Shown here: one piece after another, positions 11,496 to 21,078 of the stretch
Position numbering within the stretch: position 1 is the first letter of the stretch
Layout: each line of letters begins with the position of its first letter
Notes under the pieces: model-generated
What the model was told of the DNA's origin: nothing
Seen by the model: only the letters and a program-made list of their open reading frames with translations
The model's database searches: none
Program-made: the position numbers and the translations under genes
Virus record (IMG/VR): IMGVR_UViG_3300036719_004242
Span: 1 to 21,234 of that record
From: a virus
Reading direction: 5' to 3' (one strand)
DNA: 21,234 nt

Positions 11496-11523
11496 AAATC
11501 CATATATTTATGTATATGGATTT
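11496..11523 (+). promoter_or_regulatory. Hairpin covering the homing endonuclease start, with an ATATTTAT element inside
   Basis: AAATCCATATA (11496-11506) pairs perfectly over 11 bp with TATATGGATTT (11513-11523) around the 6-nt loop TTTATG. The right arm contains the ATG at 11516. ATATTTAT (11504-11511) spans the end of the left arm and the loop. A U-rich run follows the stem. Read-through RNA from the tube gene would fold and hide the start, and might terminate; RNA started from the internal element would lack the left arm and be free. Confidence 0.6.
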
Positions 11524-13096
11524 TTATTTTTTTAGAGATCAAAATAAGTCGGGGTACAAAACAAATGAAAAATGGTTATTAAAAAACCATCCTGATGTTT
11601 ATAATTCAATAATTAATTATTGTGGTGATATTGAATTTGAAACAAATTTCAAAGAAAAAATATGGTTTTTTTTTAATAAAACTAAAGAAAGACCTAGATG
11701 TTTAACTTGCCAAAATAGTATTAAATTTAGAAATAGGTTGGATAAACCTTATGGTGATTTTTGTTCATTAGACTGTTTTAACAAAAACAAAAATGAAATG
11801 ATTGATCGTCAGAAAAAAACTTTCAATAAAAAATATAGTATTGATTTCTATCCTCAACACATCGACTTCATTAAAAAACAAAAAAATACTAAAAAAGAAA
11901 GATACGGCGATGAGAACTATAATAATTTTGAAAAATCAAAAATAACAAGAAAAGAAAAATATGGGTCTGAAAACTATAACAATCAAGAAAAGTTAAAAAA
12001 AACAATTTTTAGTTTATATGGGTCAGATAATATCTCCAAAACTAACTGGTATAAAAAACAAATATTAAAAAATATTCAAGATAAATACCCAAACGTTAAT
12101 ATAAAATCTGCGGATAAGACTGTATTAAAAATACATTGTCCTAAATGTAATAGTGATTATGAGATAACCAAACAATTATTATATGAAAGATATAAAAGAG
12201 ATTATGAGACTTGTGTTTTGTGTAATCCAATAGGTCAAAGTTCACAAAGTGGGTATGAAAAAGAAATGGTGGAGTTCTTAAACTCTTTAGATGTACAAAC
12301 TGTACAATCATATCGACAAATGAACAGTAAATACGAAGTAGATGTTTATTTACCCGAATATAATATTGGATTAGAATTTAATGGTGTATATTGGCATAAT
12401 GAATTATTTAAAGACAACAACTACCATTTAAATAAACATGATATTTGTAAAGAAAATAATATTGATTTACTTCAAATATTTGAGGATGAATGGTTATATA
12501 AAAAAGATATTGTTAAATCAATAATAAAAAATAGAATTAATAAATCTGAAAATGTTTTGTATGCGAGGAAATGTGTAATAAAAACCGTTGATACTCAAAC
12601 ATCCAAAAAATTTTTAGACGATAATCATATTCAAGGAAATGTTTATACCAAAGTAAAGTTGGGATTATATTATAATAATGAATTGGTGTCTTTAATGACT
12701 TTTTCTAAGGGTAGAGTTATTATGGGAGGTGATAATAATGAATGGGAGTTAACTAGATTTACAAATAAAATAAACTACTCTGTAGTTGGGGGAGCGTCTA
12801 AATTATTTAATTTTTTTATTAAAAATTTTAAACCACTCAAAGTAGTATCTTATTCCGATATTAGATTATTCGGAGGTAATTTATATAATAAATTAGGGTT
12901 TAAAAAAATATCACAATCAAAACCTAATTATTGGTATGTGATAAACGATAAGAGATACTACAGATTTAATTATCGAAAGGGAATCTTAATCAAACAAGGG
13001 TATGATAAAAATAAAACAGAAAAAGAAATAATGTTTGACAGAGGAATCTATAGAATATATGATTGTGGAAATATAAGGTGGGAGTATATTCTGTGA
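11516..13096 (+). CDS. Second freestanding homing endonuclease, Vsr-like with tandem DNA-contact repeats
   Basis: 526 residues from the ATG at 11516. An ATG two codons upstream (11510) is less likely because it lies inside the ATATTTAT element, whose spacing matches the other starts. It has an N-terminal zinc pair (CLTCQ...FCSLDCF), then three or four repeats of about 20-23 residues (KKERYGDENYNNFEKSK, RKEKYGSENYNNQEKLKK, IFSLYGSDNISK) of the NUMOD type, then a second zinc pair (CPKCNSDY...CVLC). The nuclease core follows (EVDVYLPEYNIGLEFNGVYW, NNYHLNK, LLQIFEDEW). The C-terminal part parallels the gene at 8425-9945 (NHIQG, ELVSLMTF, GGASKLFNFF, YSDIR, PNYWYV, IYDCGNIRWE). It lies between tube and tape-measure genes and ends with TGA, unlike the TAA of its neighbours. 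Confidence 0.85.
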   Translation: MDFYFFRDQNKSGYKTNEKWLLKNHPDVYNSIINYCGDIEFETNFKEKIWFFFNKTKERPRCLTCQNSIKFRNRLDKPYGDFCSLDCFNKNKNEMIDRQKKTFNKKYSIDFYPQHIDFIKKQKNTKKERYGDENYNNFEKSKITRKEKYGSENYNNQEKLKKTIFSLYGSDNISKTNWYKKQILKNIQDKYPNVNIKSADKTVLKIHCPKCNSDYEITKQLLYERYKRDYETCVLCNPIGQSSQSGYEKEMVEFLNSLDVQTVQSYRQMNSKYEVDVYLPEYNIGLEFNGVYWHNELFKDNNYHLNKHDICKENNIDLLQIFEDEWLYKKDIVKSIIKNRINKSENVLYARKCVIKTVDTQTSKKFLDDNHIQGNVYTKVKLGLYYNNELVSLMTFSKGRVIMGGDNNEWELTRFTNKINYSVVGGASKLFNFFIKNFKPLKVVSYSDIRLFGGNLYNKLGFKKISQSKPNYWYVINDKRYYRFNYRKGILIKQGYDKNKTEKEIMFDRGIYRIYDCGNIRWEYIL

Positions 13097-13097
13097 G

Positions 13098-15101
13098 TTA
13101 GGAATACGAACCGTAATTAGGAGAATAATTATGAGGTGAAGATTTTGAATCGTGTCCCGAAACCAAATTAGATCCCATTTTTTCAACTCCTAAAAGAATT
13201 TCTCTCATAACAGCACTATCATTTAGTGCTAATTTTAAAGTGTTTGTATCAATATTTGGATTAGTAGAATTTATATTAAAATCAACCGCTAATGACATTT
13301 TAATTTCTTTTGGAGAATTATCTGTCATGTTTTTACTATACCCTTCAAATAAAGATTTAAAAGAATTTAAATCAGGTTGGTTCATATTTCCATCTAAATT
13401 AGTTCCGGCAACAGTTACATTTCCACCAACCTCTCTAATAGAATCTTCAGGTAATGTTTGAATCAAAACATCTTTTCCAGGTATTTTTTTTGTTTCACCG
13501 GAAGAATTATTATTATCTGGTGATTCACCACCCTCAAGATTTTTAATGGCATCAGAAATTTTTTTAAACGCTTCACCAAATGTTTTATTTTCTTCAGTAA
13601 ATTTTTTAAATGATTCTGTTAATGAATCAAACGCTTTCTTTCCCTTGTCTCCAATATTCTCTTCAAGAGAAGTACCCATTTCATTAAGAGAAACTATTAA
13701 CCCTTCAAACGATCCCCCCTCACCAATCATTACATCGAATGTTTTTCCCAAAGTCTCAAATAATTTACCACTACCAGTATTAAGATCATTAATTAACTCA
13801 TCAAATGGAAACACGTCTTTAGTCATTTTTCCAATAGTTTCCGGAGGTATTTCCATAGTTTTAACCGCAGTTCTACCAATTTCAGTTGGGGCTAAAGCAT
13901 AACCTGCTCTATGCTGTATTTCTAAAAGAGCCGACAATTGTTTTTCACTAACTGTTAATTGTTCTTTTGCAATATCTTCTAAATTTTTAGGTTGACTTGC
14001 ATCACCCAATAATTTAATATCATCTTCCGTTAATTCTGCAGTGGATTTTGTTACAGTTTCATAACCACCCTCAGCGGTTTTTGTCCTAAAAGTTACTTCA
14101 TAACCACTACCGTCTTTATTTAATGTTGCCATATTGGCAATTAAATTTTTATCTTCTTCAGAAATTGCGTCTTTAGGGAAACTAATTTCTCTCATTTTTT
14201 TGTCTAAATCTGAACTAGCTATAGCCATTTTTGTTATTTCGTCATAATTCATACCCAGAGCCTTTGAAATTTCCATTAATTGTCTACGAGCACCTGGCAT
14301 GATTTCAAATTGACCTTTAGCATTTAATTGAACAAATTGTTCAGACATTTTAATTAATTGATTTTGTAATTCAGCCGGATCGTTTTGTGCCAAATCCATT
14401 AGACGTAATGGGTCTAAAAGATCTGATTGAGCCACTCCTAAACGTTGCATTGACGCGGCCATTTCTATCGCATTTTCGGGATCAAAAAGTTTATCAGCTA
14501 AAGTTAATGTTTGATTCATATTAAATCTTAAATTAACAGCTTGAGCCGCCATTTTAGCTAAACCATCAACACCACCTTGAAAAGTAAATTGATTCATTTT
14601 TCCAATATTATCAACAACCTGTTCACTAACTCTTTGTGCGTTCACACCTATTTTTCTTGAAACATCTAATGTAATTTGCATTGCATCAGTTGCGCCTTTC
14701 ATATTAAAACCAGCATTTGCAAAATTTTGAGATACTTCTTTTGTTGAAACACCCAATACTTTTGTAATAGCAAACATTTTTTTAGCGTACTCTTCATTTA
14801 AAGTGGTGTTTGTTTGCATAGAATCCATGAAATCTAATTGAATTTTTGCCGCATCCTCCAATCCGCCAGCCATTCCTATTATTTCACCTCTTGTTAATAT
14901 TATAGATTTTTTTATATCATCAAATCTTTCAGATGAAACACCAATACTTTTAGCCAAATCTTTTGTGGCGTTGTCAGCTCGTAGTATTGGTGTTATTATA
15001 TCTACGTTAGATTTTAAAGCTTCAAAAGCTTGGGTTAAAAAATTTAAACTAGCTAAGGTATTAATTTGTTCATCAACCTTTGCTTTAAGTTCATCAGACA
15101 T
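13098..15101 (-). CDS. Tail tape-measure protein
   Basis: 667 residues, largely helical. Residues about 95-290 have the tape-measure core pattern seen in tailed phages: VLGVSTKEVSQNFANAGFNMKG, SRKIGVNAQRVSEQVVDN, MNQTLTLADKLFDPENAIEMA and MQRLGVAQSDLLDPLRLMDLAQ. A Gly/Ala helical stretch and an Asn/Ser/Gly-rich linker (DNNNSSGETKK, about 535) follow, then a C-terminal globular part. Extended helix at 1.5 A per residue would span about 100 nm, near T4 tail length (gp29 is 590 residues). The protein sits inside the tube and sets its length. It lies on the opposite strand to sheath and tube and ends 1 bp from the end of the convergent homing endonuclease. A minus-strand ATATTTATATA lies at 15129-15119, 18 bp before its ATG. 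Confidence 0.8.
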   Translation of the reverse strand: MSDELKAKVDEQINTLASLNFLTQAFEALKSNVDIITPILRADNATKDLAKSIGVSSERFDDIKKSIILTRGEIIGMAGGLEDAAKIQLDFMDSMQTNTTLNEEYAKKMFAITKVLGVSTKEVSQNFANAGFNMKGATDAMQITLDVSRKIGVNAQRVSEQVVDNIGKMNQFTFQGGVDGLAKMAAQAVNLRFNMNQTLTLADKLFDPENAIEMAASMQRLGVAQSDLLDPLRLMDLAQNDPAELQNQLIKMSEQFVQLNAKGQFEIMPGARRQLMEISKALGMNYDEITKMAIASSDLDKKMREISFPKDAISEEDKNLIANMATLNKDGSGYEVTFRTKTAEGGYETVTKSTAELTEDDIKLLGDASQPKNLEDIAKEQLTVSEKQLSALLEIQHRAGYALAPTEIGRTAVKTMEIPPETIGKMTKDVFPFDELINDLNTGSGKLFETLGKTFDVMIGEGGSFEGLIVSLNEMGTSLEENIGDKGKKAFDSLTESFKKFTEENKTFGEAFKKISDAIKNLEGGESPDNNNSSGETKKIPGKDVLIQTLPEDSIREVGGNVTVAGTNLDGNMNQPDLNSFKSLFEGYSKNMTDNSPKEIKMSLAVDFNINSTNPNIDTNTLKLALNDSAVMREILLGVEKMGSNLVSGHDSKSSPHNYSPNYGSYS

Positions 15102-15130: not shown

Positions 15131-15283
15131 TTAACCTGATTTTTCTTTAGGTGTGTTGTCTTCTATAATTCTATTAATAAGATACTTTCTAATATATGTT
15201 GGCATTATCATAAAATCAGAATATGAAGTTCTGATAAATTTTGATAAAATATAGTATTCTTCTATTAGATATTGTTTGTAATT
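15131..15283 (-). CDS. Candidate +1 frameshift extension of the tail-assembly chaperone (ATG-less 50-codon frame)
   Basis: After the TAA of the 253-residue gene (15284-15282) the +1 frame stays open for 50 codons to a TAA at 15131. The protein is well-formed: NYKQYLIEEYYILSKFIRTS, then YSDFMIMPTYIRKYLINRII, then EDNTPKEKSG. It has no ATG, GTG or TTG for its first 24 codons, though an internal ATG (15211) could give 26 residues. The mRNA at the junction is UUC UUU UAA U, where tRNA-Phe can slip from UUU to UUU one base on. The (M)PxYxRKxxI stretch resembles short second-part chaperone proteins of T4-type tails. This may be the analogue of lambda G/GT or P2 E/E'. A separate small protein started at 15211 or 15205 is the alternative. 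Confidence 0.5.
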   Translation of the reverse strand, partial: NYKQYLIEEYYILSKFIRTSYSDFMIMPTYIRKYLINRIIEDNTPKEKSG

Positions 15284-15304
15284 AAAAGAAAGGCCGAAAA
15301 AATT
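15282..15304 (-). promoter_or_regulatory. Possible +1 frameshift window
   Basis: The +1 frame is blocked by a TAG at 15307-15305, so any shift must occur between 15304 and the 0-frame TAA at 15284-15282. Two slippery sites lie in this 23-base window: UUU followed by the rare Arg codon CGG (UUU UUU CGG; slip UUU to UUC), and UUU before UAA (UUC UUU UAA). The second resembles the RF2 type of stop-dependent +1 shift. Confidence 0.4.
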
Positions 15305-16043
15305 CTACCCCGAAGGTAATATCAACAATTACCTTTTCTCCTGATGGGGAAACAACTTCTTTTTTTAAATCCAAAGATGGAACGTTTTCTTTTAAAAAAT
15401 TTTTAATGTATTTAGAGTCCATTATTGGTAATGTATCTATTGTAGTTGCAATATGTCCTAAATCGGTATTACCATTAATTTCTTTGATTTGTTTAGATAA
15501 TTTCCAAGTTATAAAAGGAGCATTTAAACCTGTAGGATAACTATTTAATTGATTATTAAGTTCAACCGTTTCACCAAATGTTAATGGTTTTAATTTTACT
15601 GAAAATCCAGATTTAGGTAATTTAGTTGTAAACAAACCATTTTCATCAGGTAAAACTTTTCCTTTTTTTATATTTAATTCGTCTAATATAATTGTAACAT
15701 TGAATGGTTTACCTGTTTTTGGGTCATTTAAATTTAAATTATATTCTGGGCCAAAAGAAGTATTTCTTAAAAAGATTAATATTGCTTCTATATCCGTATC
15801 TAATAGATCTTCACACTTTAAATCATGTTCATATAATTTATTTTTAATTAAAGATTGTAATATAGATTCATTTGAATCTCTACTATTAATATTTGTTAAA
15901 ATATTTTCATCTTTTGCTGTTAGATAACCAACTTTAACAGATTTTTTTTTGTTTTTATAAAAAATACCACCTGTTGGTAATGACACCACATCATGAGGTA
16001 AATTGAAATTTAATGCGCCTGCTTCGTAAGATTGTTGATCCAT
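15282..16043 (-). CDS. gp26-like baseplate hub assembly / tail-assembly chaperone protein
   Basis: 253 residues from an ATG with an A-rich leader. The N-terminal third has LPTGGIFYKNKKKSVKVGYLTAKDENILTN, the typical start of T4 gp26-related baseplate/chaperone proteins (Pfam T4_baseplate-like), followed by LIKNKLYEHDLKCEDLLDTDIEAILIFLRNTSFG and a beta-rich centre (FNVTIILDELNI, FSVKLKPLTFGETVELNNQL). These proteins assist hub or tape-measure assembly and are thought to correspond to the chaperones that coat the tape measure in other phages. It lies just upstream of the tape measure on the same strand, the standard place for such a chaperone. Its 3' end carries a possible +1 frameshift to a 50-codon extension. 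Family call is from pattern memory. Confidence 0.6.
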   Translation of the reverse strand: MDQQSYEAGALNFNLPHDVVSLPTGGIFYKNKKKSVKVGYLTAKDENILTNINSRDSNESILQSLIKNKLYEHDLKCEDLLDTDIEAILIFLRNTSFGPEYNLNLNDPKTGKPFNVTIILDELNIKKGKVLPDENGLFTTKLPKSGFSVKLKPLTFGETVELNNQLNSYPTGLNAPFITWKLSKQIKEINGNTDLGHIATTIDTLPIMDSKYIKNFLKENVPSLDLKKEVVSPSGEKVIVDITFGVEFFRPFF

Positions 16044-16130: not shown

Positions 16131-16175
16131 GGGTATTTATATTTTATAACCCAAACCATTTTTAGTGTTTGGGTT
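16131..16175 (+). promoter_or_regulatory. GGGTATTTATA element and 9-bp hairpin before the giant baseplate gene
   Basis: TATTTATA (16134-16141) is followed at once by AACCCAAAC (16148-16156) and its partner GTTTGGGTT (16167-16175), a perfect 9-bp stem with a 10-nt loop. Then comes a short A-rich leader to the ATG at 16192. The order element, hairpin, A-rich leader matches that before the sheath gene. GGGT recurs three times in the region (16109, 16131, 16171). The rest of the 148-bp divergent gap (16044-16130) is plain AT-rich DNA. Confidence 0.4.
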
Positions 16176-16191
16176 GTTCACTAAAAAAAAT

Positions 16192-19100
16192 ATGTCAGAT
16201 AGTTTTTTATCATTTTCTAATAGTCAAACATTTAGGCAGGCTTTACTTGCTAAAAATTTACCACCATATACCATAGAAGGGGTATATACTCCACCAAGTT
16301 CTAATATTAATCAAGAAACCGAATTAACGGTTTCTAATGTTATTGACTCACCAAATGAGTATATTACAGAAAATCCATTTGGTAATCAACTCTACCCACT
16401 TAATGAATATGGACCTGAAGGTGGTTATAATTTAGAAATAACCTATAATAACTCCGCCCAAAATAATCAATCAAACAAAGGTGAATACGACCCAAATGAT
16501 ACGGTTTTAGATTTAGTAAATGAATTTTTTATTGATGCCGCATATATTGAAAACATATATGGACCAATAGGTGGTTTTAATAATTTGGTTTCTATAACGG
16601 ATATACAAAATAATAATAAAATTTATGAACCTTATTGGGATCCACCAACTTTTGTACCATCAATTTATGGTGCTTATAATATTTTACAGTCTACAGATCC
16701 TTCTGGGTCTAGCGGAAGATTATCTGAAGATTCGTTTATAGTACAATTAGGATCACAAGTACTTAGAGATTTATTACTAACTAATCAAGCTTTTTGGACA
16801 CAACAAAATTTACAGAATAGAGACTCGATAAATTTTAATATAACTATTGATGGTATAAATGATACCTACTTAAGTAGATTAGAGGGGACATACGTACCAT
16901 ATTCACCCATACCGGGAGATTATTTTTTAGATGGTGTTACAAATAGAACTACAGATACTTTAGGGGAGGCCGTAAATTTAATTGCTGGTAGAAGTACTTT
17001 GTTAGGCGGTGCTTTAAATGGTGGTTTAACTAGAACAATTAATCCTTCACAAATATTTTTACAAAATACAAATGAAGGACAAAAAGGATTATTATTTTCT
17101 AATATTTCTTATAACATATATAGGCCGGCATATGGTGACACTCTTTTAGGTGGAATTGCAACTAATCTAATAACAACAGGATTAAATAGTTTAATTGATA
17201 ACTTTGGATTACAATTACCCGGAGCTTATTATGTTGGGTCTTCGTTATCTGAACCATCTTTTCAAGAATCTCCAATAAATGCTGTACCCATAGATGTTTT
17301 TGGTAGAGATACACAAGCTTTAGTTTTAGGACCTGATGTTTTAGGTAAGGATTATGAAAAAAATGAACAACAAATAAATTTCGGGTTAAAAGGAAAATCA
17401 ACCTCAGATAGTGGAACTTTGAACGGTGATTTTGTTTGGGTTTCACCAAAATATAAAGATAACGCCGGATATAAAGCAAAACCTGGCGGTGGTGTAGGAT
17501 CTTTAGATCCAGAGTTTAGACAAATTAGTAGTAACTATCAAAGAGATGAATCCACCAACATAGACTTTAGACCTGGATCTATTTTAGATGACACTCAAAG
17601 ACTGATTAATTCGGCGGATGGTTTACAAGGAGAACAGAGGTTAAGACATGTTGGTAATGCAATGAATCAAGTGTCTAAAGTGTTCAATGATGGATACAAA
17701 GAATTAACAAAAGGTTCTAAAGTTGTATCATATGTAAATAACGCAACTGGAGCCGAATCAGGTATTGAATACTGTCGAGTATTTGCCAAAGATACTCCAT
17801 ATTACATTTATTCTGATTTACAAAAATCTGATGGTATAACTACAACAGGTAGAAGATTTACAAATTCAGTACTAGATAAAACTTACAATTTAAATATATC
17901 TCCCACAAAAAATCCGGGGTCAAGTAATATTCAAAAAAATGAAAAAGGTGAGTATGTAGCAAAAAAATATATGTTTTCAATTGAAAATTTAGCGTGGAGA
18001 ACATCAAGCAGACCTGGTTACACTTATGATGAATTACCTGATTGTGAAAAAGGACCAAACGGTGGTAGAGTGATGTGGTTTCCACCATATGATTTAACAT
18101 TTAGTGATTCAAGCACACCACAATTTAGTGAAACAAATTTTTTAGGTAGACCTGAACCAATCTATACTTATAAACATACAAGTAGAACAGGAAGTATATC
18201 ATGGAAAATAGTTGTGGATCATCCATCTATTTTGAATTTACTTGTTGATAAACAATTAAAAGGTAGTGATGAAAGAATTAATTCGGTTTTAGAATCTTTT
18301 TTTGCTGGATGTGCTAAGTACGATATTTACGAATTAGCTAAAAAATTTAATAAAGTACCACTTAATGAGTTATTAAGAATTCAACAAGTTTTAAATCAAC
18401 CAAGATTAACAAAAGAACAAGTTGATGGGGTTATTAAAGAAATACCGGCAGATAATACCACACAGGAATCAAATATCACAACCGTTACCACAACAAAAAC
18501 TGAAGATGATCCAAAGGCCGCTCAATTTGCTGATAAGTATTTAAGTTTTGGTTTTTATTTTGACAATGATATACCAGGACCTAGTACAGGATCGATAAGT
18601 AATCAGGATTATGAAAGTACATATAATTCATATATATCCCAAAAACAAACTTATACAACTATTGCAAGTCAAACTTTTAATGAAAATTCTTTAGATTATA
18701 ATGTTTCAGAATTTTTTGATCAAGCGGTTATTGGTAATTTTGAAGTGTTAACACAAGGAGAAACTAATTTTTTTACTGATGCATATGAAATACTAAATGC
18801 GGGTGGTACAATTAACATTAAGTTAAAAGGTGCGGCATCCGCATCAGCCTCGCCTGAGTATAATCAAAAATTATCTGAAAGAAGGGTTGATTCTGTTGTT
18901 AAATTTATAAAAAATTTTAAAGTTGGGGACATAAATCTTAACACATTTATTGAAAATCAAAAATTAGTAGTAGAATTAGAATCTAGTGGAGAAGATACGG
19001 AGGTAACTCCAAAAAATAAAGAATCATTAACTATGGCTAAAATATTTTGTGATATAGATGTTAAAGACAAAAATGATAAAGTAACATCCAACTCACAAAA

Positions 19101-21078
19101 ATATTCTGTAAGTGCTATGGCGTGTAGAAGAGTGGCGATAAGTAGTATTGATGCTAAACTACAAACAACAACAACAATAACTGAAACTAAAGACGTACCT
19201 AGTGAAGTAAAAAAACAAGTAACCGAACAAATAAGAACCGCTCCAACAGTAGAACCTACTTCACCTGATTTTACTGGAATAAGTAAAAAAATATTAAGAT
19301 TATTATTATCTGAATGTGATTATTTTGATATGTTAAAGGAAGAAAATCCTATGATATACACATCTTTAAAAGAAAAAATAAAATTTTTTAATCCGGCATT
19401 TCATTCTATAACTCCTGAAGGTTTAAATGCTCGATTAACATTCTTAAATCAATGTGGAAGACCAGGAGAAACAATACCTGTTATTAGTGATGGTAAACCA
19501 AGAGTTAATGACGCAATTAATACATCTTTTGGAGCTCCTCCTGTATTGGTGTTAAGAATAGGGGATTTTTATCACTCTAAAATTATTCCAGATGGGATCC
19601 AATTTAGTTATGATCCGTTGATATACGACATGAATCCAGAAGGTATTGGTTTACAACCAATGATTGCTAAAGTTACAATGAATTTTAAATTTATTGGAGG
19701 ACATGGATTGGCTAAACCAATAGAGGAATTACAAAACGCTTTATCATTCAACTATTATGCAAACACAGAAATTTATGATGAAAGAGCAACACCTACCGAA
19801 GATACATCAAAAATAGATAAGGAATTTTTTGATCTTTTGAGCGCTGGAGAATATCCTGCAAAACCGGTAAATCAACAAGAAAATAATGGGGGGACAACAA
19901 TTGGTGTTGTTGTTACAAACATACCAGTTACAGATGGTCAAGAAGGTGAAATTACCTATCAAAAAGTTATGGATGATTTGGTTAATCAAACACTTGATTA
20001 TTTCAAGACTTTAATCGCTCAATTAGAAAGTATAAATAATAATGATTTAAATGGTAATTATTATTTATTACAAATAGTAAATTATATTAATGATGATGAA
20101 ACTAGTCGAATTTATAGGAGATGGGGCCCAAATGATATTTTTAATATATATGGAAAACCAACAAAATATGGAGAATATATAAAAAATATTTTTGATACTG
20201 CTGTGGAAGATGATATTAGTAATAATGAAAACCCAATAATTTATTTTTTAGTTGATAATGAATTTGATGAAGATGTTATTGAAAATGTAAGACAAAATTT
20301 AAAAAATTATTTAAAAGATTTTTATACCATTTATAGTGATAATGTGGTTAATACTATAAATTTATTAGTTGATTCAGAAAAAAATTTGGTACAAACAATA
20401 AGAAAAATAATGTTAGTAAATGGAAATACTGTGTTAAATACGCCAACAGATGGTTTTTTGTTGTCCGGTAATAAACCAAGAGTTTATAATATAGAAGGGA
20501 CATCTATAATAAATAATATTGATTATGAAAGTACTTCAAGTGAACTATCTGGCGATTTTCAAGAATTAGAAAATGTTTTAAACAATTTTAATAACAAAAT
20601 ATTAGATTCATTTGGAATTATTGATGAAAAGTTATTTAATCAAAACGATAATAATTTTTCAAGTTTTTATTATCCAAATAATTTGAAAGAAGGATTAAAA
20701 ACTGACGGATATCAAAGATTTTATGTTATAATGTCTAGAGTTCTTACTAATAAAACAAAAAAAGAAGAATTTAAAAATAAAATAATAACACAAACAGTAA
20801 TTCAAAGAGACAAGTCTAAAAAAATAAGTAAAAAAATTGATAACATTTTAAATGATTTAGAAAAACAATATAATAACATAAATTCTAAATATGAAAAAAT
20901 ATTTACAGATCTTTTGAGATCTCCAGATTATATTGAGTACACTGATGGTATAGAAACGGTTTTATACAAAAAAGGTAAACCTAGAAAATTTGAATATACT
21001 ACAGTACCAGGAAATAATAATACTCAACAAGAGGATGAAATAAAAAAATTGTATTTAGATATACCAAAATTTAATTAA
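16192..21078 (+). CDS. Giant baseplate / tail-tube-initiation protein with OmpA-like domain
   Basis: 1628 residues from the ATG at 16192. An in-frame GTG at 16165 would add nine residues but lies inside a hairpin. The N-terminal 500 residues are Asn/Gly/Pro/Tyr-rich (NPFGNQLYPLNEYGPEGGYN). Around 626 a conserved block reads GRVMWFPPYDLTF and, further on, FLGRPEPIYTYKHTSRTGS and WKIVVDHPSIL, a beta-structured domain found in large phage baseplate proteins. After a Thr/Lys linker an OmpA/MotB-like domain (about 840-960) shows INIKLKGAASASASPEYNQ and SERRVDSVVKF, a likely peptidoglycan binder. Near 1124-1200, RIGDFYHSKIIPDG, FSYDPLIYDMNPEG and FIGGHGLAKPIEELQNALSF form a second tail-tube-like block. 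The last 300 residues are helical and charged. A role at the start of tube polymerisation (like gp48/gp54) with cell-wall binding is inferred. Confidence 0.7.
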   Translation: MSDSFLSFSNSQTFRQALLAKNLPPYTIEGVYTPPSSNINQETELTVSNVIDSPNEYITENPFGNQLYPLNEYGPEGGYNLEITYNNSAQNNQSNKGEYDPNDTVLDLVNEFFIDAAYIENIYGPIGGFNNLVSITDIQNNNKIYEPYWDPPTFVPSIYGAYNILQSTDPSGSSGRLSEDSFIVQLGSQVLRDLLLTNQAFWTQQNLQNRDSINFNITIDGINDTYLSRLEGTYVPYSPIPGDYFLDGVTNRTTDTLGEAVNLIAGRSTLLGGALNGGLTRTINPSQIFLQNTNEGQKGLLFSNISYNIYRPAYGDTLLGGIATNLITTGLNSLIDNFGLQLPGAYYVGSSLSEPSFQESPINAVPIDVFGRDTQALVLGPDVLGKDYEKNEQQINFGLKGKSTSDSGTLNGDFVWVSPKYKDNAGYKAKPGGGVGSLDPEFRQISSNYQRDESTNIDFRPGSILDDTQRLINSADGLQGEQRLRHVGNAMNQVSKVFNDGYKELTKGSKVVSYVNNATGAESGIEYCRVFAKDTPYYIYSDLQKSDGITTTGRRFTNSVLDKTYNLNISPTKNPGSSNIQKNEKGEYVAKKYMFSIENLAWRTSSRPGYTYDELPDCEKGPNGGRVMWFPPYDLTFSDSSTPQFSETNFLGRPEPIYTYKHTSRTGSISWKIVVDHPSILNLLVDKQLKGSDERINSVLESFFAGCAKYDIYELAKKFNKVPLNELLRIQQVLNQPRLTKEQVDGVIKEIPADNTTQESNITTVTTTKTEDDPKAAQFADKYLSFGFYFDNDIPGPSTGSISNQDYESTYNSYISQKQTYTTIASQTFNENSLDYNVSEFFDQAVIGNFEVLTQGETNFFTDAYEILNAGGTINIKLKGAASASASPEYNQKLSERRVDSVVKFIKNFKVGDINLNTFIENQKLVVELESSGEDTEVTPKNKESLTMAKIFCDIDVKDKNDKVTSNSQKYSVSAMACRRVAISSIDAKLQTTTTITETKDVPSEVKKQVTEQIRTAPTVEPTSPDFTGISKKILRLLLSECDYFDMLKEENPMIYTSLKEKIKFFNPAFHSITPEGLNARLTFLNQCGRPGETIPVISDGKPRVNDAINTSFGAPPVLVLRIGDFYHSKIIPDGIQFSYDPLIYDMNPEGIGLQPMIAKVTMNFKFIGGHGLAKPIEELQNALSFNYYANTEIYDERATPTEDTSKIDKEFFDLLSAGEYPAKPVNQQENNGGTTIGVVVTNIPVTDGQEGEITYQKVMDDLVNQTLDYFKTLIAQLESINNNDLNGNYYLLQIVNYINDDETSRIYRRWGPNDIFNIYGKPTKYGEYIKNIFDTAVEDDISNNENPIIYFLVDNEFDEDVIENVRQNLKNYLKDFYTIYSDNVVNTINLLVDSEKNLVQTIRKIMLVNGNTVLNTPTDGFLLSGNKPRVYNIEGTSIINNIDYESTSSELSGDFQELENVLNNFNNKILDSFGIIDEKLFNQNDNNFSSFYYPNNLKEGLKTDGYQRFYVIMSRVLTNKTKKEEFKNKIITQTVIQRDKSKKISKKIDNILNDLEKQYNNINSKYEKIFTDLLRSPDYIEYTDGIETVLYKKGKPRKFEYTTVPGNNNTQQEDEIKKLYLDIPKFN

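What the first reader, a model, noticed from the sequence alone, without database searches (positions are those of the whole stretch)
15131..15304. Candidate +1 programmed frameshift making a longer tail-assembly chaperone upstream of the tape measure
The gp26-like gene ends UUC UUU UAA U. The +1 frame is then open for 50 well-formed codons, with no usable start in the first 24, and ends just before the tape-measure gene. A shift is confined to a 23-base window that contains two slippery sites (UUU CGG with a rare codon, and UUU UAA). Frameshifted chaperone pairs upstream of tape measures are conserved in lambda, P2 and Mu-like tails, mostly by -1 or -2 shifts. A +1 shift in a T4-type tail would be unusual.
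Basis: partly seen in the sequence, partly recalled or inferred. Interest (0 to 1): 0.8.

Follow-up and report, generated by a model that had tools for sequence, protein, structure and literature searches.

The report
+1 frameshift makes phage tail chaperone
In this T4-related phage and more than a hundred relatives, ribosomes are apparently programmed to slip one base forward at the end of a tail-assembly chaperone gene, beside a conserved RNA hairpin, to make a longer second version of the protein; this phage group was thought not to use frameshifting here, so it matters for how tails are built and how ribosomes can be made to slip forward.

Summary
The finding holds up, and relatives sharpen it. 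The minus-strand gene 15282-16043 is a T4 gp26/gp51-family tail-assembly chaperone. Its +1 frame (to 15131) is open and conserved in all 101 distinct close relatives examined and in a second clade of 59, and it folds as a confident three-helix domain. Fusing the two frames gives a protein that aligns end to end with the long chaperone forms of cyanophages and with T4 gp51. The slip site is UUU_CGG (15299-15294), not UUU_UAA. The P-site UUU never varies (101/101), and the A-site codon is CGN in 100/101 although AGA dominates elsewhere in these genes. This is the motif used by influenza PA-X. Two relatives read UUC UUU CGC, and most of clade 2 reads UUU CUU UGG; these rule out a -2 slip and slippage on a U run. 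New here is a covarying RNA hairpin just 5' of the slip site (15349-15308). Engineered upstream hairpins favour +1 shifting; I found no natural case in the papers searched. Cyanophages carry the same extension in the -1 frame, and T4 has two separate genes. A 2022 paper (title only seen) argues T4-like phages do not use frameshifting. All evidence is comparative; no peptide or reporter data exist.

The parts
15282..16043 (-). Short tail-assembly chaperone (TAC-N; T4 gp26 family), 253 aa, zero frame; stop UAA at 15284-15282
   Evidence: Pfam PF12322 T4_baseplate E 1.1e-10; PHROG 150 baseplate hub E 3.7e-15; AlphaFold2 pLDDT 87; fold matches to SP-15 and T4-like hub assembly proteins
15308..15349 (-). 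Conserved RNA hairpin 5' of the slip site: outer stem CCCC 15349-15346 with GGGG 15311-15308; inner stem AAGGUAAU 15335-15328 with AUUACCUU 15320-15313; 3' end 8 bases before the P-site UUU
   Evidence: Alifold on relatives: no such signal at seven of the eight other C-terminal windows of the gene tested and only a 2-pair trace at the eighth; covariation 0.293 against 0.168 shuffled, 0/500; fold_alignment; coordinates
15305..15307 (-). Last +1-frame stop (UAG) before the slip site: 5' limit of the shift window
   Evidence: translation; distance
15294..15302 (-). Slip site UUU UUU CGG: E-site UUU 15302-15300, P-site UUU 15299-15297 (slips to UUC), A-site CGG 15296-15294
   Evidence: P-site UUU 101/101 with 0 parsimony steps; A-site CGN 100/101
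15131..15295 (-). +1-frame extension (T domain), 54 codons GLSFNYKQ...PKEKSG plus stop at 15133-15131; fused product (TAC-NC) 303 aa
   Evidence: conserved in all close relatives examined; AlphaFold2 pLDDT 90.4, three helices; fused translation P0001
13098..15101 (-). Probable tape-measure protein (667 aa), next gene downstream
   Evidence: position only: the long gene after the chaperone is annotated as tape measure in Flavobacterium phage immuto; no family match of its own

Best explanation
This is a tail-assembly-chaperone gene with two products. Most ribosomes stop at 15284-15282 and make the short form (TAC-N, gp26-like). [quoted passage not shown] A hairpin that refolds just behind the ribosome, ending 4-5 bases before the UUU UUU, probably pushes it forward and sets the rate. 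The two forms are inferred to coat the tape measure and recruit tail tube, as lambda gpG and gpGT do. Shown by comparison: dual coding, the site, the direction, the hairpin and the homology to gp26/gp51. Inferred: ribosomal slippage itself, stimulation by the hairpin, the ratio, and the role in assembly.
For: Conserved +1 frame in 101 and 59 distinct loci. Codons at the site: UUU 101/101 in the P site against 679:214 UUU:UUC elsewhere; CGN 100/101 against AGA 748, AGG 85, CGT 67, CGA 49, CGG 2, CGC 1 elsewhere. Parsimony: P-site UUU 0 steps against 12-21 for other conserved Phe columns. L316 and L347 read UUC UUU CGC, and clade 2 reads UUU CUU UGG, UUU CUA UGG or UUU UUU UGG, which leaves +1 on UUU followed by C or U as the common mechanism. 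Hairpin: helix 1 99.1% paired in 94 sequences, compensatory changes, 0/500 shuffles; a short hairpin in the same place in clade 2. Fused proteins of clades 1 and 2 align over 280 columns, E 5e-28, and align with cyanophage -1-fused proteins plus gp51 over 262 columns, E 4e-13. Gene order sheath, tail tube, chaperone, long protein in relatives. UUU_C with A-site CGN is the experimentally mapped +1 site of influenza PA-X (PMC3498833). Upstream hairpins stimulate +1 shifting on 70S ribosomes (PMC6321510).
Against: No peptide, reporter or profiling data. CGG and CGC at the site also follow from the +1 coding need for a small residue (GNC = Gly, Ala, Val), so their rarity may be incidental. L061 has CUC, not CGN. 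The hairpin ends 7-8 bases before the P-site UUU, further than the 3 bases of the RF2 Shine-Dalgarno (from general knowledge), so the stimulation is unproven. The outer stem varies in few pairs and few sequences. The T domain alone matches gp51 weakly (probability 3.8; 88.6 when pooled with cyanophages). The tape-measure label rests on position.
Confidence: 0.87

Rival explanations
1. The +1 frame is a separate small gene translated by its own start or by re-initiation after the chaperone stop.
For: Many relatives have an ATG or TTG somewhere in the frame. Many cyanophages and KVP40 have an ATG right after the chaperone stop in their -1 frame, and T4 encodes a stand-alone long protein.
Against: 30 of 101 relatives have no ATG/GTG/TTG in the first 28 codons and 12 have no ATG at all, while conservation starts at the first +1 codon and the dual-coded codons CCU UUC are nearly fixed. 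It does not explain the invariant UUU CGN or the hairpin.
Confidence: 0.05
2. A -2 ribosomal slip, or RNA-polymerase slippage, on the U6 run reaches the same frame.
For: U6 is present in 99 of 101 close relatives; a -2 slip from the second UUU would re-pair within U6. Phage Mu uses -2 (PMC3498833).
Against: L316 and L347 read UUC UUU CGC, GXN1 reads UUC UUU CGU, and many clade-2 members read UUU CUU UGG, with no run longer than three U and no -2 re-pairing. Six U is short for polymerase slippage.
Confidence: 0.06
3. The shift is +1 but is driven by the stop codon (UUU_UAA or UUC_URA), as in RF2, giving a product without dual-coded residues.
Against: The stop is further on in 11 of 101 relatives and in clade 2; UUC to UCU is a poor re-pairing; UUU UUU, CGN, CCU and UUC upstream would be unconstrained.
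Confidence: 0.04
4. The shift is real but the hairpin serves something else, such as mRNA stability, translational coupling or termination control of the chaperone gene.
For: The helix ends 7-8 bases before the P-site codon; SP-15 and GXN1 have no obvious equivalent hairpin. The conserved AGGAG in its internal loop is unexplained.
Against: It sits at a fixed distance from the slip site in all 94 clade-1 sequences, and a different, shorter hairpin occupies the same place in clade 2. Among the C-terminal windows tested only this one has a real consensus structure; a neighbouring window shows a 2-pair trace.
Confidence: 0.3

Closest known systems
Lambda gpG/gpGT and other frameshifted tail-assembly chaperones
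   Same: Gene between tail tube and tape measure; a short form and a rarer long form with a C-terminal extension in another frame
   Different: Those mostly shift -1 (Mu -2); here +1 with an upstream hairpin; the protein family is T4 gp26/gp51. Atkins 2016 states this shifting is conserved 'except T4' and suggests +1 for haloarchaeal HSTV-2 (PMC5009743)
T4 gp26 and gp51 (hub assembly chaperones)
   Same: Same families PF12322 and PHROG 150; gp51 is a longer paralogue whose C-terminal extension resembles the cyanophage T domain (E 1.4e-12)
   Different: T4 makes the two forms from two separate genes; here one gene and a shift
Cyanophage (Kyanoviridae), HTVC008M and KVP40 gp26 with -1 T domain
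   Same: Homologous chaperone followed by a homologous extension out of frame
   Different: Extension is in the -1 frame after a U_UUU_UUC heptamer or similar U run, in most sequences read with an ATG near the stop
Influenza A PA-X +1 frameshift (UCC_UUU_CGU) and similar RNA-virus sites
   Same: UUU_C P-site slippage with A-site CGN; no downstream stimulator evident
   Different: Eukaryotic RNA virus; no upstream hairpin reported; E-site codon there is UCC, here UUU or UUC
Bacterial RF2 (prfB) +1 frameshift
   Same: +1 direction; an element just upstream of the slip site; slow A site
   Different: RF2 uses CUU_UGA and an internal Shine-Dalgarno; here no stop codon and an RNA hairpin instead

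Membership tests
Tail-assembly chaperone pair (G/GT type) | Gene lies between tail tube and tape measure | tested here: met
   L018: sheath, 292-aa ORF, tail tube, chaperone, then a 600-aa protein; immuto: the next long gene is annotated tape measure. The tape measure of the window itself is assigned by position only
Tail-assembly chaperone pair (G/GT type) | Second product with a conserved C-terminal extension in another frame | tested here: met
   +1 frame under purifying selection in 101 loci; conserved in clade 2
Tail-assembly chaperone pair (G/GT type) | Both products made in a fixed ratio and bound to the tape measure | not testable with these tools
   needs protein and assembly data
T4 gp26/gp51 family (PF12322, PHROG 150) | Sequence match above the curated cut-off | tested here: met
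   42 bits against a cut-off of 24.5; PHROG 150 E 3.7e-15
T4 gp26/gp51 family (PF12322, PHROG 150) | Long form homologous to gp51 including its C-terminal extension | tested here: met
   hhalign E 4e-13 over 262 columns through the T domain with cyanophages plus gp51; T domain against gp51 alone is weak
T4 gp26/gp51 family (PF12322, PHROG 150) | Match to a solved chaperone structure (not strictly defining) | tested here: inconclusive
   no PDB match by sequence or by fold; no solved T4 gp26 or gp51 turned up, so this does not count against membership
PA-X-like UUU_CGN +1 frameshift site | UUU_C in the P site with CGN in the A site | tested here: met
   UUU 101/101, CGN 100/101
PA-X-like UUU_CGN +1 frameshift site | Trans-frame peptide fits +1 and not -2 | not testable with these tools
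   comparative evidence only (L316, L347 and clade 2)
[quoted passage not shown]
   A-site codon is CGN; the stop is several codons later
RF2-like +1 frameshift | Internal Shine-Dalgarno about 3 bases before the P-site codon | tested here: not met
   GGGG covaries with CCCC: GGU or GGA variants carry compensating changes, so it is a stem arm
-1 heptamer frameshift (X_XXY_YYZ) | In-phase heptamer with the extension in the -1 frame | tested here: not met
   the extension is in the +1 frame and the -1 frame is full of stops

The most novel reading that the evidence does not exclude
A natural +1 programmed-frameshift cassette in a DNA phage: UUU_CGN stimulated by a hairpin that refolds 5' of the ribosome. 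Within one chaperone family nature has then used three ways to make the same long protein: +1 shift (this group), -1 shift (cyanophages) and separate genes (T4).
Probability: 0.65. Interest if true: 0.85.

Novelty: new variant of a known kind. Interest (0 to 1): 0.78.

Why it matters
Frameshifted chaperone pairs are widely conserved in long-tailed phages, with T4 named as the exception (PMC5009743). A 2022 paper, known here by title only, proposes a mechanism other than frameshifting for T4-like phages. This group has the T4-type chaperone and appears to frameshift, in the less common +1 direction. It offers a compact natural system (hairpin, UUU, CGN) to test whether a structure behind the ribosome can drive a forward shift, so far shown only with engineered hairpins in the papers found. 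It also explains small orphan ORFs annotated between chaperone and tape measure in related phages.

Tried and rejected
DNA search of phage records with the window: no match. PDB search by sequence and by fold gave nothing. First hhalign runs against gp51 with a shallow profile failed and worked only with a deeper, pooled profile. The GGGG before the slip site was first read as a Shine-Dalgarno; covariation with CCCC showed a stem. No strong structure was found downstream of the slip site (mean z -0.7, mononucleotide shuffles). Rfam gave only sub-threshold matches. No tRNA gene lies in the window. Vladimirov 2022 was not in the library.

Full report
What is in the window. The window is a 21,234-base virus record. 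On the minus strand, gene 15282-16043 encodes 253 residues ending ...GVEFFRPFF, and the next gene (13098-15101) encodes 667 residues. The mRNA reads GGGGUAGAA UUU UUU CGG CCU UUC UUU UAA U. The +1 frame is closed by UAG at 15307-15305 and then open to UAA at 15133-15131.

What the gene is. The zero-frame protein matches Pfam T4_baseplate (E 1.1e-10, above the curated cut-off) and PHROG 150 baseplate hub (E 3.7e-15). T4 gp26 and gp51 both belong to these families, and gp51 covers PHROG 150 to its end, about 45 positions beyond gp26. A review lists both as hub assembly chaperones (PMC3004832). In relatives the gene lies directly after a tail-tube gene (with, in some, an extra gene such as a homing endonuclease between) and before a long gene in the tape-measure position; the same order holds in Flavobacterium phage immuto, where the long gene is annotated tape measure. 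This is the canonical place of tail-assembly chaperones. The AlphaFold2 model of the short form (pLDDT 87) matches predicted T4-like hub assembly proteins and SP-15, but no solved structure.

The +1 frame is a real coding sequence. Eighty IMG/VR relatives gave 41 distinct extensions; a profile search added 58 more and two with a variant site, 101 in all. All continue in the +1 frame for about 46-54 codons. Close pairs have pS 0.65 and pN 0.11, and third positions vary most. A second clade around phage immuto gave 59 distinct extensions, also +1. More distant phages (Microcystis Mel-JY01, Streptococcus GXN1, Bacillus SP-15, Rhodothermus RM378, LR756508) and five genome contigs, including a Prochlorococcus single cell and Flavobacteriales bins, also carry it in +1. 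LR756511 does not: its extension is in the -1 frame with its own ATG. The extension alone is predicted as three helices at pLDDT 90.

Where and how the shift occurs. In 101 sequences the P-site codon is UUU in all, with no change on the tree, while other conserved Phe columns change 12-21 times. The A-site codon is CGG 43, CGU 29, CGC 26, CGA 2, CUC 1; elsewhere in the same genes Arg is AGA 748, AGG 85, CGU 67, CGA 49, CGG 2, CGC 1. The codon changes 23 times on the tree yet never becomes AGR, which would remove the C needed for UUU to re-pair as UUC. The third base also sets the first +1 residue, so the rarity of CGG and CGC may be partly incidental. Two relatives read UUC UUU CGC (L316, L347), GXN1 reads UUC UUU CGU, and many clade-2 members read UUU CUU UGG; none allows a -2 slip or slippage on a U run. 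The zero-frame stop lies one or two codons further on in 11 of 101, and further on in clade 2 too, so it is not the trigger. The motif UUU_C with A-site CGN is that of influenza PA-X, shown by mass spectrometry to be +1, with an efficiency near 1% (PMC3498833).

A hairpin 5' of the site. Codon use showed two further fixed patches, GCC CCN UCA GGA GAA and GGG. They pair. RNAalifold finds a hairpin in this window; of eight other windows of the gene tested (30-240 bases upstream) seven gave nothing and the nearest a 2-pair trace. On 94 sequences the outer stem is 99.1% paired, with compensatory changes (GCACC/GGUGU in L018 and L028, GUCC/GGAC in L033 and L040); the inner stem is 81% paired with many double changes. 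Covariation is 0.293 against 0.168 for shuffles (0 of 500 reach it) and at most 0.128 for slid versions. Those shuffles do not keep relatedness, so the number is not a probability. Clade 2 has a different, five-pair hairpin in the same position (90% paired, weaker covariation), and LR756508 a seven-pair one. SP-15 and GXN1 show no obvious equivalent. Engineered hairpins just upstream of a slip site stimulate +1 shifting on bacterial ribosomes and in yeast (PMC6321510); I found no natural case, but only open-licence papers were searched. The helix here ends 7-8 bases before the P-site codon, and whether it acts at that distance is untested.

Kinship of the long forms. Fused proteins of clades 1 and 2 align over 280 columns straight through the junction (E 5e-28). 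Together they align with cyanophage fused proteins plus gp51 over 262 columns (E 4e-13). The extension alone aligns with the pooled cyanophage and gp51 extensions (probability 88.6, E 2.6e-6), and the cyanophage extension with gp51 (E 1.4e-12); the extension against gp51 alone is weak. In cyanophages, Pelagibacter phage HTVC008M and Vibrio phage KVP40 the extension is in the -1 frame after UUUUUUC or a similar run. T4 has separate genes. So one protein pair appears to be produced in three ways. The order in which these arose was not tested.

Prior knowledge. Frameshifted chaperones are described as conserved except in T4, with a likely +1 case in haloarchaeal HSTV-2 (PMC5009743). Vladimirov, Gautam and Davidson 2022 identified the T4-like chaperone genes and, by its title, suggests a mechanism other than frameshifting (cited in PMC10885494 and PMC12846349); I could not read it, so whether it covers this group is unknown.

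Limits. Everything is comparative. Ribosomal slippage, its rate, stimulation by the hairpin and the role in tail assembly are inferences. The host of the window's phage is unknown.

Noticed in passing
window 11510-13096 (+): Homing endonuclease (PHROG 3339, E 5e-112) beside the tail genes; a similar gene sits between tail tube and chaperone in L012 (family match) and probably, by ORF size and place, in L027 and L033.
   Followed up: partly
window 15336-15345 (-), internal loop of the hairpin: The loop keeps AUCAGGAGAA (Gly GGA 97/101), a Shine-Dalgarno-like AGGAG about 42 bases before the slip site, without a known role.
   Followed up: partly
L184, L185, L182, L196-L275: Cyanophage gp26 genes end in U_UUU_UUC with the homologous extension in the -1 frame; PHROG 634 'baseplate hub assembly catalyst' looks like this extension annotated as its own gene.
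   Followed up: partly
L082:3240-3476, L088:3201-3377, L085:3336-3446, L089:3312-3431: Small hypothetical genes annotated in Mel-JY01, RM378, immuto and SP-15 overlap the +1 extension and are probably fragments of the long chaperone.
   Followed up: no
L090 (LR756511): In this jumbo-phage relative the extension is in the -1 frame with an ATG overlapping the chaperone stop, suggesting re-initiation or a -1 shift.
   Followed up: no
window 16165-21078 (+): 1,637-codon gene divergent from the chaperone, with a weak OmpA-like stretch (E 0.0013, below the cut-off).
   Followed up: no
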